A stretch of DNA of 52,898 nt from a virus. The notes below the pieces were generated by a model. The model was not told the DNA's origin. It did no database searches and worked only from the letters and a program-made list of their open reading frames with translations. Positions within the stretch are counted from its first letter, which is position 1; each line of letters starts with the position of its first letter. Shown one piece after another: positions 2,476 through 45,227 of this stretch. The position numbers and the translations under genes were made by a program. The DNA is taken from the IMG/VR virus record IMGVR_UViG_3300025030_000139, positions 1 to 52,898 of that record; one strand, 5' to 3'.

Positions 2476-5400
2476 CCCATCCCGTTCCGCTCCGCCTCGT
2501 TCGCCATCTTCCCCAACCGCTGCGCGATGATCTCCGCCAGCCTCGCCTCGCTCATCCCCGGCGCCGCCGTCACATTGATCGTCGGCGCGATCGTAATCGA
2601 CCTCATCACTCCCCCCTCTCCCTGTGGGAGAGGGGCCGGGGGTGAGGTCTTAAACGCCTCCGCCGGCACCGCCTGCCGCCCTTCCCGCATCGCCTTGCTC
2701 AATACAAACTCATCGTCGTGCAGGTAATACAACCCCCGCATCACCTCCCCGCCGTACTGCCGGCCGGGCGCTCTCGCCGGGGCAGGCGCTCTCGCCGGGC
2801 CGCCTGCTGCCGCGGCCCCGCCCGAAATATCGGGTATCTCACCAACCGTCGTGATCTTGATCTTCACATCTATCAGGCGCGGGATCTTGTCAAGCGTGGT
2901 GATCACCTCGCCAACCCGCGTATTCGCCGCGGTCGACGCCGTCTGCACCACCACCATCGTGTCGCGGATCGCATTCTGCGCCCCGGTCGTCGCCGTCTGC
3001 ACCACCACCATCGTGTCGCGGATCGCATTCTGCGCCCCGGTCGTCGCCGTCTTCACCGCATCGGCCGCCGTCGTCGCCTTCCCCTTGGCCTCGTCGGTCT
3101 TTCGCCCGGCGTTCTGCCAACCCTCTCCCATATCAAGCAAATCTTGCTTGGAGAGTTTCTTGACTTTGGTCGACACCGCCTCCGTCCCGGACGCCACCCC
3201 GTCCAACGCACCTTTGCTATTCAGCAGAAGATCGTACCAGTTGGCCGCATCGGGGTTGGTCAAAGCGGCCACCAGTGTTTCCTGCTTGATCGCCGCGGTC
3301 AGAGCGCTCTGGGAATACAAATGCGTGATGTCATTCAGCGCCGAAGCCCGGCGATTGTATTCGTCCACGGACAAGGCACCAGTCTGCAATGCCTCTCCAA
3401 GTGCATCGAAGGCCGATCTCGCCTTGTCAACTTCACCCGCCCGCTGCATCGCGGCGATTTCCTCTTCCAGCGCGGTCTTGTGGTCCTGTTGAGCCTTCGT
3501 CGCCCCGCCCACCACGGCCGTGTGCTCGCCCAACTTCGTCGTCAGTTCTGCCTGTTGTTCTTTCAGGCCTGCCATGCGGGCGCCATATTCCGCGTCCGTC
3601 TCGTTCTTCTTCCGCTGCGCCAGCGTCACGTCTTCCGTGACGGCCGCCAGTTTCGCTTCGGCCGTCGCTCGTTCCTCGGCGCTCAGTTTCGCGTTCCGCA
3701 CCACAGCGTTGTGCGCCGGCCCCTGCGCCGCGATCTCTTTCTCCACGTCGCGCAGTTCCTTCATCTTCTCCGCCAGCGCCTTCTCTTGATCGGTGTATCC
3801 AATCGCCAGGCTGCGCGCATTCGTCACCGCGCCCCAACCGCTGGTGACTTTCTCCGTCAGATTATCTTGCGAATCGGCTAGATCGTCGGTCGCGCCATTA
3901 ACGATCATCATCGCAGCGGACATCTCGCTGTACGCTTCTGCCCGTTTCTTCGCCCCGAGCGCCAAATCCTCTTGTTGCTTCGCCAGTTTATATTGCGATC
4001 CCGTCATTTCGGATTGAAGACCAATGGCCTTCTTGATCTCATTGCTCACGGTTTTGGTTGCAGCGCTCAGTTCCCGCTGCACGCCTTGATACACTGCGCT
4101 GTTTTTCTGAATGCTGCGGTTGTGTTCTTGCTCCGCACGCATCTGTTTATACTCTGCTTCGGTCCTCTCATAATGGGCCATGACGGTTTTTTTGATTTCG
4201 CCGTTCATCCCCCGCGTCACTTCGATCAAGTTCCCTTCGGCGTCCACCTGCAGGCCGACCACATCCGCCGCCCGACGTACTTCCGCCTGATATTCTGCGT
4301 AGGTTCCCGCGCTCGAGCGCATCGCCACTTCGTGGTCGATCACCGCCTGGCGCAGCCGGTTCGTGCCATTGGTCACGATTTCGACGGCAGCTCCTGCTTG
4401 CTGCATGCGGTCATCGCGGTTGTTGGCCATCTTCAGCAGGTCTTCATTCGTCGCCCGCGAGGCATCGCCGATATTCTTAATAAGTCCGGCCACGAGAATC
4501 AATCCGGCGACGAGTAACCCTCCCGCGGCAAAGACCGTGCCCACCGTGGCCGCGGCCACGCCCATCGCATGGAGGCCCTGAACGATAAGCCCCAGGGTGG
4601 AAATGAACCGCCCGGCGATCGACAACAGCGGCCCGATCACCGCCGCCAGCGCGAAGAGTGTGACGATCGTCTGCTGCGTTCCCGACGACAGGTTCTTGAA
4701 CCACTCCGCCACGCTCTTGAGCGCATCCCCCAATTGCTTCAACACCGGCAGCACCGCCGGCAGCACGCTGCTCCCCAGCGTGATCAATAAGTCCTGCCCC
4801 TGTGCCAGTGCGGCCTGGAATTTGAACTTGGCCGTCTTGCTCGCCGCATCGAAGGCCTTATCCAGATCAGCGACCCCCGCCTTGGCGAGTTTCTGGAAGA
4901 TCGTGTTCGTCTTGTCCGCGTTCTCTCCCGTCAGCGACAGTAGCCCTCGGAAACCCCGGATGTTCGGGAAGATCGCCGCCAATGCCTCGTCGTCGTCGCC
5001 GATACGCTCGCGCAGCGTGTTGAGCACCGCCAGCAATCCTTCTTCCCGGATTTGCTCGCGCAATCCCTTAGCGGATAGCCCTACGCTTTCCAGTGTATCG
5101 CTCGCCTGCTCGCTCGGCTTCAACAGCGCCGTCATGATGCCGGACAGGTTCGTCGCGCTTTCTGCCGCATCAAACCCCACCAGCGTTTGCGCCGCCAGCG
5201 CCGCGCTCACCTGGTCGAACGAAATCCCCAACTGCGCTGCGATTGGGATCACGCGCCCCAGCGCCGGCGCGATCTCGTTAGCCTCGCCCTTCCCCTCGCG
5301 CACCGCCGCCACCAGGATGCCCGTCGCCGTCCCGGCATCCAGGTTGCTGTCCGCGTAGGCGTTCAGCGCGCTTGTCACCGCGTCCGCCACGATCTGCGTA

Positions 5401-39091: not shown

Positions 39092-39118
39092 CATTGTTCA
39101 TTGATCATTGATCATTGC
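39092..39118. repeat. CATTGATCATTGATCATTG tandem repeat
   Basis: Three CATTGAT-type 7-nt units at the 3' end of the recombinase gene; another short iterated family. Confidence 0.8.
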
Positions 39119-40398
39119 TAAAGCGCCTTCCGATGATTCTTCAAAATCCGATGCGCCCCAATCTTGTCGCTCACCCGGTTCACCGCATCGCTCATCCCCT
39201 CTACCTTCTTCGACGTGTAGATCAGCGTCGTCGCCAGGTTCCTGTGCCCCAGCTGCCGCTGCACCTCGTCGATGCGCGCCCCTTCTTCCAGCATCTGCTC
39301 TGCCAGCCCGTGCCGCAGGCTGTGAATACAATACTTCCCCTTGATCTTCGCCTTGTGCAGATACATCTGGAAGATCCGATTGACCTCGCTGATCGACAGC
39401 GGGCTCGTGCCCGGCGCCCAGTCCTCATGGCCCAGCCGCTTCGCCCGATCGGACGTGGCCGTGAAGATATATTCGTCGTCGCCCATCGTTTCCAGCCGTC
39501 CCGCCGCGGCCAGGTAATCGGTGATCGCCTCCCACACATCCGGCGCCACCTCGTCCTTCTTCCCCTCCACGTGATGCTTGCCGCGCCACGTCTGCCACAC
39601 CCGCCCGTCCACGTCAACCTTGAAATCCCCGAACTTCGCCGTGCGCACCTCGCTGTTCCGCCGGCCCGTCAACGCATACGTCATCAACAGCGCCAGGTGC
39701 ATCGCGCCCTGCGCCGTATCCGTCGGGATCGCGCTCAGCAGCCGGTTCGTCTCGTCCGGCGTCATCCCCTCCCGCTCGAACAAAATCTCGAACTTCGGCC
39801 GCGACACCGCCGCAAATGGATTGACCCGATCGAACAGCATCGCCTCGACGCCGCCCTGATAGATCGGGTAGGTGGCCGCCTTGGCGTAATACGACGACAG
39901 CACCGCGATCGCATTCGCGATCGACTTCGGGCTGAGCGCCTTGTCCGTTTTGGTGTTGGCCTGCAGCATCTTGCCCCGCTTCCCGATGCGCTGCTTTTTC
40001 CCCACTGCGTGCGTCCGGTTCTCCAATCGCACCTTGTACGCATTCGCCGCGCGCGCGTCCACATTCCACGGCTTCACCGGCGACGCATCGATCACATTCG
40101 CGATCCGCCGCGCCCGCTCGATGTCCGTCTCGAACGGCATCGCCTCGAACCGCCCGGCGGGGTCGTATCCGAAGAAGTCCAGCCACACATCGAAGTATCG
40201 TTCCTGGCTGCGCACACTCTGCAGCCGATCGTTGTGCCACAGCCACATCACCGTGAACTCGGCCCAATACTGGACCTGCTCCACGTAAGTGCGCTGCTGC
40301 GTCTGCCCGTTCGACCCGGCAACCTGCACCCCGTCGCCAAACAACGTGACGGAATAGTCTTCACCTTGCTCGACAATGAGTTTCAACTGCTCTTCCAT
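39118..40398 (-). CDS. Tyrosine recombinase, second copy
   Basis: 426 residues from ATG 40398 with AAGGA upstream (the frame to 40509 passes through a CTTTGCGGC repeat). Catalytic set complete: Arg in LTGRRNSEVRTAKFG, Lys in WRGKHHVEGKK, His-x-x-Arg in IHSLRHGLAEQML, His in QLGHRNLATT and the tyrosine in LIYTS. N-terminal SAM-like DNA-binding region with SVRSQERYFDVWLDFFGYDP and ALSPKSIANAIAVLSSYYAK. Larger than the integrase at 44280 and on the opposite strand, among early genes. It may be a second integrase, an excision or resolution enzyme, or a domesticated recombinase. Confidence 0.88.
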   Translation of the reverse strand: MEEQLKLIVEQGEDYSVTLFGDGVQVAGSNGQTQQRTYVEQVQYWAEFTVMWLWHNDRLQSVRSQERYFDVWLDFFGYDPAGRFEAMPFETDIERARRIANVIDASPVKPWNVDARAANAYKVRLENRTHAVGKKQRIGKRGKMLQANTKTDKALSPKSIANAIAVLSSYYAKAATYPIYQGGVEAMLFDRVNPFAAVSRPKFEILFEREGMTPDETNRLLSAIPTDTAQGAMHLALLMTYALTGRRNSEVRTAKFGDFKVDVDGRVWQTWRGKHHVEGKKDEVAPDVWEAITDYLAAAGRLETMGDDEYIFTATSDRAKRLGHEDWAPGTSPLSISEVNRIFQMYLHKAKIKGKYCIHSLRHGLAEQMLEEGARIDEVQRQLGHRNLATTLIYTSKKVEGMSDAVNRVSDKIGAHRILKNHRKAL

Positions 40399-40565
40399 TC
40401 TTTTTTCCTTTGCGGCTTTGCGACTTTGCGTGAGAAAGTTCTTCCTTCGCCTCGATCGGCCAGCCAACCCAAACCGGCCGACCGAGGCTACCCAAGGAGG
40501 AAAACACATCGGCCCACCGGCGCTGCTCCGGCATCAACATCGCCCGCGCCGGTAGGCCGACTTCC

Positions 40566-43023: not shown

Positions 43024-43057
43024 TGCAAAGCATTTGCTCGTCATTCTGTGATATACT
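43024..43057 (+). promoter_or_regulatory. Extended -10 promoter with operator-like palindrome
   Basis: TATACT at 43052-43057 preceded by TGTGA (extended -10). The -35 position is covered by the palindrome TGCAAAGCA (43024-43032), identical to the core of the repressor-region operator. The predicted start is about 43064, where the first hairpin repeat begins. Confidence 0.6.
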
Positions 43058-43063
43058 AATCAT

Positions 43064-43197
43064 GGTATTCGCCCCGGCATTGCCTCTCCACTCCGCCGAT
43101 GCCGGTGTGGTATTTGCACCGGCATCGCCTCTACACTCAGCCGATGCCGGTTTGGTTTTGAATTACCTCCCCGGTCTTGCCCGTCTCCAAGGCCGGG
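43064..43197 (+). ncRNA. Array of tandem RNA hairpins upstream of the NYN ribonuclease gene
   Basis: Two 45-bp direct repeats (43064-43108 and 43109-43153, about 85% identical) each contain a hairpin: CCGGCAT/ATGCCGG (43074-43105) and ACCGGCAT/ATGCCGGT (43118-43151), with 18-nt loops. A third hairpin has arms CCCGGTCTTG/CAAGGCCGGG (43170-43197). The 3' arm of the first can also pair with the 5' arm of the second. No convincing protein is encoded. A promoter lies just upstream and a terminator just downstream. Confidence 0.65.
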
Positions 43198-43208
43198 TAA
43201 ATCACCAC

Positions 43209-43242
43209 CCACGGATTGCCCGTCAATCCGTGGTTTTCTTTT
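43209..43242 (+). terminator. Intrinsic terminator between hairpin array and NYN gene
   Basis: Perfect 10-bp arms CCACGGATTG and CAATCCGTGG around CCCGT, followed by TTTTCTTTT. The NYN ribosome site (CCGGAGAG) starts directly after, so read-through would control expression. Confidence 0.8.
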
Positions 43243-43258
43243 GCACCGGAGAGCCGTC

Positions 43259-43834
43259 ATGAGCGACGAACGTGTCGTCGTCTTCATCGACGGCTCCAAC
43301 TTCTATCACGCCCTCAAGTCTGATTTTGGAGACGCCAAGATCGACTTTGAAAAACTCGTCGGCAAACTCGTCGGCGCGCGCCGCCTCGTCCGCATCTATT
43401 ACTACAATGCGCCGGTCAATCAGACCCGCGAGCCTGATCGGGCCAAGGCTCAGCAGCGTTTTTTCGACCAGATTCAGCGCGTGCCCTATCTCACCCTCAA
43501 ACTGGGCCGCCTGGAGCCTCGTGGCGCCGTTCAAATCGAAAAAGGCGTCGATATTGTCATCGCCGTCGATCTCATAAAATATGCTCACAGCGACACCTAT
43601 GACACGGCCATCCTGATCAGCGGCGACAGTGACTTCGTGCCCGCCGTCATCGCCGTCCAGGACCTGGGCAAGCACGTCGAAATGGCTTGCGCCCATTCTG
43701 GCCTGTCGGATCTGCTGCGCAAGACCTGCGATCGTATCGTCGAATTGACGCCGGATCTGCTATCGGATTGTTGGCGTGACGGTCTCCGCCATGACTATCT
43801 CAATCCGAATCAGCACAAACATCGGAGACACTGA
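43259..43834 (+). CDS. NYN-domain (LabA/DUF88) ribonuclease
   Basis: 191 residues from ATG 43259, GGAGAG upstream. PIN-like fold NYN signature: VVVFIDGSNFYHAL (first Asp), KIDFEKLVGKLVGARRLVRI, EKGVDIVIAVDLIKYAHSD (second acidic group) and TAILISGDSDFVPAVIAVQD (third). The full acidic set of a metal-dependent RNase is present. NYN proteins cleave structured RNAs and occur in toxin, defence and RNA-processing settings. The unusual point is the upstream hairpin array and terminator, a layout like type III toxin-antitoxin loci. Confidence 0.85.
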   Translation: MSDERVVVFIDGSNFYHALKSDFGDAKIDFEKLVGKLVGARRLVRIYYYNAPVNQTREPDRAKAQQRFFDQIQRVPYLTLKLGRLEPRGAVQIEKGVDIVIAVDLIKYAHSDTYDTAILISGDSDFVPAVIAVQDLGKHVEMACAHSGLSDLLRKTCDRIVELTPDLLSDCWRDGLRHDYLNPNQHKHRRH

Positions 43835-44063
43835 GAGAATCACTGGGAATTACACAACCGCCATACATCCGGCATCAAAACCGCCCGTTTTTCTGGGCAC
43901 TTTATTAGCTGCCCAACCGTGCACGGGCAGCCGGCCAACGAAAAACATTAGCTTTCCTGTCCAACAGGGGAACCGCAGCACACTCGTCTATTGCACCGCA
44001 CCGCCAATCGGGACGCGAAAACGGCAGCCAATGGTCTGCCGGTAGAGGCCTTTCGGAGAACAT
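43835..44063. other. Non-coding region left of the probable attP
   Basis: No credible gene. Holds a 7-bp perfect stem GCTGCCC/GGGCAGC (43908-43931), TTAGCT-type dispersed motifs (43904, 43949) and a GGTAGAGG stretch just before the tRNA fragment. It may contain integrase arm sites, but no repeated arm motif was obvious. Confidence 0.4.
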
Positions 44064-44105
44064 CTGTTAACCGATGGGTTCCTGGTTCGAGTCCAGGCTG
44101 CGGAG
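44064..44105 (+). other. Probable attP core: 3' half of a tRNA-Asn(GTT) gene
   Basis: Begins with anticodon loop CTGTTAA, continues with the 3' anticodon stem and variable loop (CCGATGGGTT), the T-arm CCTGG-TTCGAGT-CCAGG and the acceptor strand CTGCGGA plus discriminator G. Spacing matches bacterial tRNA-Asn exactly from the anticodon on, but no TCCGCAG 5' acceptor or D-arm of correct geometry precedes it. Such 3' fragments next to an integrase gene are the classic phage attachment site that restores the host tRNA on integration. Confidence 0.8.
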
Positions 44106-44279
44106 CTTTCATACGAGAATCTGCCGCCGCTTGCCCGGCGCCGGCAACCGATCGCCCATCGGTCGTTTTTTCGGGGTTCTCCGGTTGGGTACATACGGTG
44201 TCCTTTCCCGTATAAAAAAAACGCTTGTTCCGCTGGATAGCTAATGATGCTTAGCGAAGCAAGCAACCGGAGGCCCATA

Positions 44280-45227
44280 ATGTCCAACATCGCGTTACAA
44301 CACGCACTCACCCTCTCGCAAGCCATCGAAGGCGCCGTCATCGCCGCCCAGGCCCGCCGCCTCAGCGACAACACCATCCGCGAATACACCCATTATTACC
44401 GTAAGCTACAGACCTTCTACGCCCCGATCGATCCGCCCTTCATCTCGATCGATCGCGCGCAGCTGCAGCAGTTCATCAACAGCCTGACCGGGCTGTCGAA
44501 CAAATCGATCAGCAACGTCCGCGTCTCGCTCCTCTCCATGTGGCGTTGGGCCGTCTCGTTCGGCCTCACGGACATCAATGCCGCCCGGCAGATCGAACCC
44601 ATCAAGTCCGAGGTTCGCGCCGTTCATCCCTTCACCAAGACCGACGTGCAGGCCATGCTCTACGCCGTCGAAAAATCCAGGCCCTACACGCGCCCCGGCA
44701 AAGGAACCTGCTCGCACACTGCGCACCAATATCTGCGCAACAAGGCCATCATCTACCTGCTGCTCGATACCGGCCTGCGCAGTTCCGAACTGTGCGATCT
44801 GCAGATCAAACACGCCGACAAAAAAAACCTTCGCCTGAAAGTCTTCGGCAAGGGCGCGAAAGAACGGATCGTCCCATTCTCCTCTTCCACCGCTCTACAT
44901 CTCTGGCGCTACCTCGCCACTCGGCCCGATGCCTCCCCCGACGATTACCTCTTCGCCACCTCCGGCGATCGCCGTCTCGACAACCACAACCTCTACCACG
45001 CCCTCAAACTCATCGGCGAGCGCGCCGGCGTTGCCGACGTGCACCCGCACAGGTTTCGTCACACTTTTGCAATCAACTTTCTGCGCAACGGCGGAAACGT
45101 CTACACCCTCAAGGAAATCCTCGGCCACGCCTCGCTCAAAATGTGCCTGCGCTACCTTGAAATTGCCCAGGCCGACGTCGAAGCCAACTACCGCCTGGCC
45201 AGCCCCGTCAAAAACTGGGGCCTCTAA
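44280..45227 (+). CDS. int: Tyrosine integrase (XerC/D-type)
   Basis: 315 residues from ATG 44280, chosen for GGAGG seven bases upstream (an earlier ATG at 44244 lies in a dispersed repeat). N-terminal core-binding domain (RLSDNTIREYTHYYRKLQTF). Catalytic residues: Arg in LDTGLRSSELCDLQ, Lys in FGKGAKERIVPF, His-x-x-Arg in HPHRFRHTFAINFL, His in ILGHASLKMC and nucleophile Tyr in LRYLEIAQ. Standard length for a simple integrase. It lies 174 bp from the tRNA-Asn fragment, strongly suggesting integration into that tRNA gene. Followed by a palindromic element. Confidence 0.92.
   Translation: MSNIALQHALTLSQAIEGAVIAAQARRLSDNTIREYTHYYRKLQTFYAPIDPPFISIDRAQLQQFINSLTGLSNKSISNVRVSLLSMWRWAVSFGLTDINAARQIEPIKSEVRAVHPFTKTDVQAMLYAVEKSRPYTRPGKGTCSHTAHQYLRNKAIIYLLLDTGLRSSELCDLQIKHADKKNLRLKVFGKGAKERIVPFSSSTALHLWRYLATRPDASPDDYLFATSGDRRLDNHNLYHALKLIGERAGVADVHPHRFRHTFAINFLRNGGNVYTLKEILGHASLKMCLRYLEIAQADVEANYRLASPVKNWGL

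What the first reader, a model, noticed from the sequence alone, without database searches (positions are those of the whole stretch)
43024..43834. Hairpin-repeat RNA plus terminator in front of an NYN ribonuclease: type III toxin-antitoxin-like layout
Seen: promoter, two 45-bp direct repeats each forming a hairpin, a third hairpin, a textbook terminator (10-bp stem, TTTTCTTTT), then an NYN-domain RNase with its own ribosome site. Known: type III toxin-antitoxin loci have exactly this order (repeat RNA antitoxin, terminator, RNase toxin), but their toxins are ToxN/CptN/TenpN proteins. Inference: an NYN RNase may be paired with and inhibited by, or process, the hairpin RNA. It lies in the prophage-expressed block, where abortive-infection systems are frequent.
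Basis: partly seen in the sequence, partly recalled or inferred. Interest (0 to 1): 0.78.

Follow-up and report, generated by a model that had tools for sequence, protein, structure and literature searches.

The report
NYN ribonuclease paired with hairpin RNA
A phage genome carries a small RNA made of four tandem hairpins right before an RNA-cutting (NYN) enzyme gene, and the same RNA-plus-enzyme pair recurs next to this enzyme in many bacteria, archaea and phages, which points to an undescribed two-part module in which the RNA probably restrains the enzyme.

Summary
Window 43063-43242 encodes four hairpins, each behind a short linker; the last doubles as the terminator. NYN, a LabA/DUF88-type RNase gene, follows at 43259-43834. 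Two covariance models trained only on relatives each have exactly one hit in the window, hairpin 3 (E 9e-6) and hairpin 4 (E 6e-7). Across 32 NYN loci from Chloroflexota, other bacterial phyla, archaea and phages, the same units (AUUAACUCC linker, compensated stem, UUG/CAA apex) lie beside NYN. In 24 loci they are upstream on the same strand; in 7 they are downstream and convergent, and in 1 divergent, with their own promoters. The RNA is therefore a separate gene, not just a leader. RNA-first searches of about 1,300 genomes returned 29 new places; 17 adjoin an intact NYN and 3 a broken one. Best reading: a type-III-toxin-antitoxin-like (AbiF-like) module with an NYN nuclease and a trans-acting stem-loop RNA, here in a prophage beside an integrase. 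The pairing is shown by comparative genomics. Toxicity, inhibition and anti-phage function are inferred. It is not a ToxIN/CptIN/TenpIN member. No description was found in Rfam or in the papers searched.

The parts
43049..43057 (+). Extended -10 promoter element TGA-TATACT; expected RNA 5' end about 43063
   Evidence: Read in the sequence. No consensus -35. The -10 lies at about the same place relative to the first hairpin as in relatives.
43063..43107 (+). Unit 1: linker plus hairpin (stem 43074-43105), 45-nt direct repeat copy 1
43108..43152 (+). Unit 2: linker plus hairpin (arms 43118-43130 / 43139-43151), 87% identical to unit 1
   Evidence: z -3.5
43154..43205 (+). Unit 3: linker GAAUUACCUCC plus hairpin 43170-43197
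   Evidence: Only hit of covariance model R1 (window not in training) in 52.9 kb, 30.1 bits, E 9e-6
43196..43242 (+). Unit 4 and intrinsic terminator: linker GUAAAUCACCACC, hairpin 43209-43233, U-tract 43234-43242
   Evidence: Only hit of model R2 (window not in training) in the window, 38.8 bits, E 6e-7; terminator scan
43248..43253 (+). Ribosome-binding site GGAGAG of the NYN gene
   Evidence: Sequence
43259..43834 (+). NYN-domain ribonuclease (LabA/DUF88-like), 191 aa, complete acidic active site (D11, N14, D98, D104, D123, D125 invariant in 43 relatives)
   Evidence: Pfam NYN E 2e-28; PADLOC HEC-09 E 5e-21; AlphaFold2 pLDDT 91.6, best fold match 2qip, TM 0.71/0.82; conservation
44244..45227 (+). 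Context: tyrosine integrase next to the module (not part of it)
   Evidence: Pfam Phage_integrase E 1e-33

Best explanation
A two-component RNA-RNase module. A separately terminated small RNA gene makes a short RNA of one to four tandem stem-loop units (four in the window, about 180 nt). The adjacent NYN/PIN-like ribonuclease binds these units, recognising the single-stranded AUUAACUCC linker and the UUG/CAA apex, and is probably held inactive by them; it may also cut the array into units, as ToxN does. When the RNA drops, for example when an incoming phage shuts off transcription, the NYN would cut cellular or phage RNA and stop the infection. In the window it is a lysogeny-region cargo gene beside the integrase. 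Shown by sequence analysis: the pairing, the RNA structure, an independent transcription unit, the intact active site, the wide and patchy spread, and arrays kept where NYN is broken or lost. Inferred: binding, inhibition, toxicity, processing and the anti-phage role.
For: Models R1 and R2, trained without the window, hit only this locus in the window. Over 86 and 97 loci, all 47 hits with E below 1e-3 lie within about 100 nt of a NYN gene. Compensatory changes: R1 covariation 0.46 against 0.19 shuffled, R2 0.59 against 0.22, 0/500 shuffles each. The RNA gene occurs in three orientations (24 codirectional, 7 convergent, 1 divergent loci), with a sigma-70 promoter of at least 9/12 on the RNA strand in 15 of 20 loci against 4.2% of controls. 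RNA-first searches gave 29 new places: 17 with an intact NYN and 3 with a broken one adjacent. In genomes G488 and G490 the NYN is flanked by an array on each side. A distant subfamily (Carboxydocella plasmid L002 and L176) also has four hairpins with different stems and similar loops. Array retained with NYN broken or gone: L149, L196, L202, L197, L201, L203, L204. Phage copies sit with lysogeny genes. An experimentally tested parallel with the same layout is AbiF/RCd22 (PMC12373285).
Against: No expression, toxicity or binding data. About 43 Dehalococcoidia chromosomal relatives and some Zixibacteria keep the NYN with conserved active-site residues but no detectable array, so the protein does not always need the RNA. 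DPANN loci often have one hairpin and no terminator. The window's own promoter is weak by consensus. Eight RNA-first hits have no NYN nearby, of which L205 is probably chance and L162 abuts a HEPN-MNT pair. No pseudoknot is evident.
Confidence: 0.55

Rival explanations
1. The hairpins are the RNA cofactor or a trans-acting product of the NYN (guide, processing substrate or regulatory RNA matured by it) rather than an inhibitor. The module would act as an RNA-directed or RNA-activated nuclease.
For: Stand-alone RNA gene in any orientation. A conserved single-stranded linker and variable stems fit a recognised scaffold. A CRISPR-linked NYN RNase is proposed to trim crRNA (PMC11346440).
Against: No spacer-like or target-like variable segment was seen. 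Arrays persist where NYN is broken or absent.
Confidence: 0.2
2. The hairpins are a cis-acting leader or attenuator through which the NYN autoregulates its own mRNA.
For: In 24 loci the array is directly upstream, in many with a terminator-like last hairpin. Ribonucleases commonly autoregulate through 5' leaders (general knowledge).
Against: In 8 loci the array is on the opposite strand, downstream or upstream, with its own promoter in the six bacterial or phage cases scored. Arrays also occur without NYN.
Confidence: 0.1
3. The NYN is an ordinary RNA-decay enzyme and the RNA a decoy or titrator that tunes it; no toxin-antitoxin or defence role.
For: A large hairpin-less, apparently vertically inherited clade in Dehalococcoidia keeps conserved active-site residues.
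Against: The RNA-bearing forms are patchy and spread across phyla, archaea and phages; arrays are retained after NYN loss.
Confidence: 0.1
4. The palindromes act as DNA (recombination, replication or protein-binding sites).
For: Inverted repeats next to an integrase in the window.
Against: The linker sequence, promoter and U-tract give the element a strand; covariance-model scores strongly favour one strand; linkage is to NYN, not to integrases.
Confidence: 0.05

Closest known systems
AbiF / RCd22 (AbiFr) HEPN-RNase and non-coding RNA system (PMC12373285; reviewed in PMC12737573)
   Same: Prophage RNase gene preceded by a sigma-A-promoted small RNA of tandem stem-loops (two motifs of 33-35 nt) ending in a terminator. 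The RNA acts in cis and in trans by binding the protein. Compensatory stem changes are tolerated.
   Different: The RNase is HEPN, not NYN. The RNA motif (Rfam RF03085) does not match here. Convergent and divergent arrangements are seen here.
Type III toxin-antitoxin: ToxIN, CptIN, TenpIN (PMC5086642)
   Same: Repeat RNA, Rho-independent terminator, then an endoribonuclease gene; phage-resistance modules spread among bacteria.
   Different: ToxN/CptN/TenpN toxins are a different family; here LabA-like NYN. Crystallised type III antitoxins are pseudoknots; here plain stem-loops. The RNA often has its own promoter and opposite orientation.
PADLOC HEC-09 / NYN candidates (Hma-embedded candidate series)
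   Same: The NYN protein matches HEC-09 at E 5e-21.
   Different: Listed as a protein model only. No RNA partner is described in the papers found.
CRISPR-associated NYN RNase of Bacteroides fragilis (PMC11346440)
   Same: NYN-domain ribonuclease acting on small RNA in a defence setting; Mn2+-dependent ssRNA cleavage.
   Different: Part of a type III CRISPR system, proposed to trim crRNA; no hairpin array of its own.
VPA0982 (PDB 2qip), LabA/DUF88-like NYN
   Same: Best fold match, TM 0.71/0.82.
   Different: 23% identity; function unknown.

Membership tests
Type III toxin-antitoxin (ToxIN/CptIN/TenpIN) | Tandem-repeat RNA upstream of an RNase gene with a Rho-independent terminator between | tested here: met
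   Window and most bacterial or phage loci; not universal (7 convergent, 1 divergent)
Type III toxin-antitoxin (ToxIN/CptIN/TenpIN) | Toxin of the ToxN/CptN/TenpN family | tested here: not met
   NYN/LabA family by Pfam and fold
Type III toxin-antitoxin (ToxIN/CptIN/TenpIN) | Antitoxin repeat folds as a pseudoknot | tested here: inconclusive
   Only stem-loops predicted and supported by covariation; no pseudoknot search was made
Type III toxin-antitoxin (ToxIN/CptIN/TenpIN) | RNA binds and neutralises a toxic protein | not testable with these tools
   Needs expression and binding assays
AbiF / abiF RNA system | HEPN (Abi_2) protein and Rfam abiF motif | tested here: not met
   No HEPN in the protein; no Rfam family reached its gathering score in the leader or matched abiF
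NYN/LabA ribonuclease family | NYN fold with conserved acidic active site | tested here: met
Known Rfam RNA family | Match at or above gathering score | tested here: not met
   No match in the window; among the 20 relatives only tRNAs
Cis-acting leader/attenuator | RNA lies in the 5' UTR of the regulated gene | tested here: not met
   Fails in 8 of 32 loci; the window itself is of the upstream, same-strand kind

The most novel reading that the evidence does not exclude
A previously undescribed class of RNA-protein module shared by bacteria, archaea and their viruses: an orientation-independent small RNA of tandem stem-loops that controls (inhibits or arms) an NYN nuclease. This would be a third kind of RNase, after ToxN and HEPN, to be independently captured by an RNA partner, and an RNA-antitoxin-type system in DPANN archaea and Methanophagales.
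Probability: 0.5. Interest if true: 0.9.

Novelty: new variant of a known kind. Interest (0 to 1): 0.82.

Why it matters
If confirmed, it adds a new RNase class and a new RNA family to RNA-controlled toxin or defence modules and extends such modules to archaea. It also gives a tractable two-gene system for asking how unrelated nucleases come under RNA control, a step proposed to precede RNA-guided systems such as Cas13. The RNA family is absent from Rfam 15, and models built as here would find it in other genomes.

Tried and rejected
Single-protein search of viral contigs found nothing; alignment queries were needed. Rfam: no family in the window, a sub-threshold CcsR1 match only (16.7 bits against 65.3). 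Defence-island test: 69 neighbours of the arrays show no recurrent partner protein; methyltransferases and HTH genes are scattered, so no third component was found. Motif-only DNA pattern without the linker gave chance hits inside genes (L190-L192). Weak hits L147, L148 and probably L205 are not near NYN and were treated as noise. My first labelling of 'hairpin-less' relatives (L024, L027, L028, L037, L070, L108, L032) was wrong, because their arrays are on the other strand downstream; the tree was re-run with corrected labels. RNA/NYN co-divergence by Mantel test is significant overall (rho 0.31, p 0.0005) but weak without the DPANN clade (p 0.07), so it is not used as main evidence. Resemblance of the linker ACUCC to the anti-Shine-Dalgarno sequence was considered; it is too short to judge. 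No genomes could be drawn as kin of a virus record. One paired phylum search turned out to repeat (same genomes) and is not counted twice.

Full report
Observation. The two 45-nt repeats (43063-43107, 43108-43152; 87% identical), the third hairpin, the terminator and the NYN gene are all present. The 191-nt region folds far better than dinucleotide shuffles (z -6.2). The promoter is an extended -10 only (TGATATACT, 43049-43057; no two-hexamer site). In the full-length fold repeats 1 and 2 can exchange arms.

The protein. The 191-aa product is an NYN (PIN-like) ribonuclease (Pfam E 2e-28; PADLOC HEC-09 E 5e-21). The AlphaFold2 model has pLDDT 91.6 and its best solved match is the LabA-like VPA0982 (2qip, TM 0.71/0.82). 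D11, N14, D98, D104, D123 and D125 are invariant among 43 relatives, including forms with and without the RNA.

Conservation of the RNA. Relatives were collected from IMG/VR and GTDB genomes. In the 180 nt before NYN, 15 of the 30 closest relatives carry at least two strong hairpins against 59 of 1,213 control windows from the same loci (p 8e-12). The units share a single-stranded linker (consensus near AUUAACUCC), a lower stem that varies with compensation, often a 1x1 mismatch, and a UUG/CAA apex (alignments). Pair counts: R1 set, 95.5% of cells paired and covariation 0.46 against 0.19 shuffled; R2 (terminator-type) set, 96.7% paired, 7 of 9 pairs with double changes, covariation 0.59 against 0.22; 0 of 500 shuffles each. 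The units were chosen as hairpins, so the percentage paired is partly built in; the compensatory changes and the blind tests below are the stronger evidence.

Blind tests on the window. Neither model contained the window. Each gave one hit in 52.9 kb on both strands: R1 at 43154-43205 (E 9e-6) and R2 at 43196-43242 (E 6e-7). These are hairpins 3 and 4, so the terminator hairpin is itself a member of the family.

The RNA is a separate gene. Over 86 and 97 loci all 47 hits with E below 1e-3 lie beside NYN. In 24 loci the array is upstream on the same strand. In L024, L027, L028, L032, L037, L070 and L108 it is immediately downstream on the opposite strand, and in L030 it is upstream and divergent. 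A sigma-70 promoter of at least 9/12 matches lies before the first hairpin on the RNA strand in 15 of 20 bacterial or phage loci, against 4.2% of control windows (10/12 or better: 13 of 20 against 0.7%), including the six convergent or divergent cases scored. A pure cis-leader role is therefore excluded as the general explanation.

RNA-first searches. R1 or R2 was run on about 1,300 genomes, most of them chosen without regard to NYN. Of 29 new places with E up to 1e-3, 17 adjoin an intact NYN gene, 3 a broken one (L149, L196, L202), 1 lies at a contig edge (L159) and 8 have no NYN nearby. In two DPANN genomes the NYN is flanked by an array on each side (L151/L163, L153/L164). Some NYN-less arrays keep promoter-like and terminator-like sequences (L201, L203, L204), and one, L162, is convergent with a HEPN-MNT pair. 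DPANN archaea carry the RNA in 19 of 156 genomes, whereas only 2 of 400 Chloroflexota genomes gave an R2 hit: the distribution is patchy.

Phylogeny. With corrected labels, the RNA-bearing NYNs occupy many branches (6 label changes against 25.7 in shuffles). The window groups with four phage NYNs (83/85 support), and most RNA-less forms form one Dehalococcoidia clade. This fits an old RNA-NYN pair with a few losses, mixed with horizontal spread. A distant Carboxydocella plasmid NYN and a 72% relative of it also carry four-hairpin leaders with different stems and similar loops.

Context. In the window the module lies just before a tyrosine integrase. In other phage records it lies next to a serine integrase (L006), repressor-like HTH genes (L106, L108), an anti-repressor (L108), a Gp49-like gene (L106) and a DNA methyltransferase (L007). 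No second protein is co-conserved.

Interpretation. The closest tested parallel is the prophage AbiF/RCd22 system, where a small RNA of tandem stem-loops in front of a HEPN RNase neutralises it in cis and in trans (PMC12373285). The classical type III families have the same order but a different toxin family and pseudoknot antitoxins (PMC5086642). I therefore file this as works-like type III/AbiF, not as a member of either. The linkage and the RNA family are well supported. The direction of control (inhibitor, cofactor or substrate) and the biological role are inferred. Taxon names of metagenome-assembled genomes may be affected by binning.

Literature. Nine full-text searches found no report of an NYN gene paired with a hairpin RNA. 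Subscription-only papers were not searchable, so prior description cannot be excluded.

Noticed in passing
L162 (G533:C2) 1501-1564: A unit very like L165's sits convergent with a HEPN gene followed by an MNT nucleotidyltransferase gene (HEPN-MNT toxin-antitoxin type) instead of NYN.
   Followed up: partly
L027 and L028 about 3990-4620; L037 3995-4652: The NYN and its convergent RNA are inserted inside conserved operons: the NYN start overlaps the stop of a leuB-like gene (L027, L028), or the pair lies between two ATP synthase genes (L037).
   Followed up: no
G488:C15 (L171) and G490:C72 (L172): DPANN archaeal NYN genes flanked by two arrays, one codirectional upstream and one convergent downstream.
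   Followed up: partly
window 44060-44108: A tRNA-3'-end-like stretch (GGTTCGAGTCCAGGCTGCGGAGC) lies just before the integrase gene, possibly an attachment-site remnant; ARAGORN and Rfam report no tRNA there.
   Followed up: partly
window 39118-40509 (-) and 44244-45227 (+): Two different tyrosine recombinases lie within 6 kb of each other.
   Followed up: no
L004, L008, L010-L012, L019 (Leptospira plasmid and related viral records), 35 nt before the NYN start: A more distant NYN family has a single conserved hairpin GGGGCTATCTC-gtaa-GAGGTAGCCCT just before its start codon.
   Followed up: no
L108 hairpin 2 (4565-4615, minus strand): The stem arms CCUGCGGUUG / CAACCGUAGG look, from memory, like the strands of 16S rRNA helix 45 in swapped order; possibly coincidence.
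   Followed up: no
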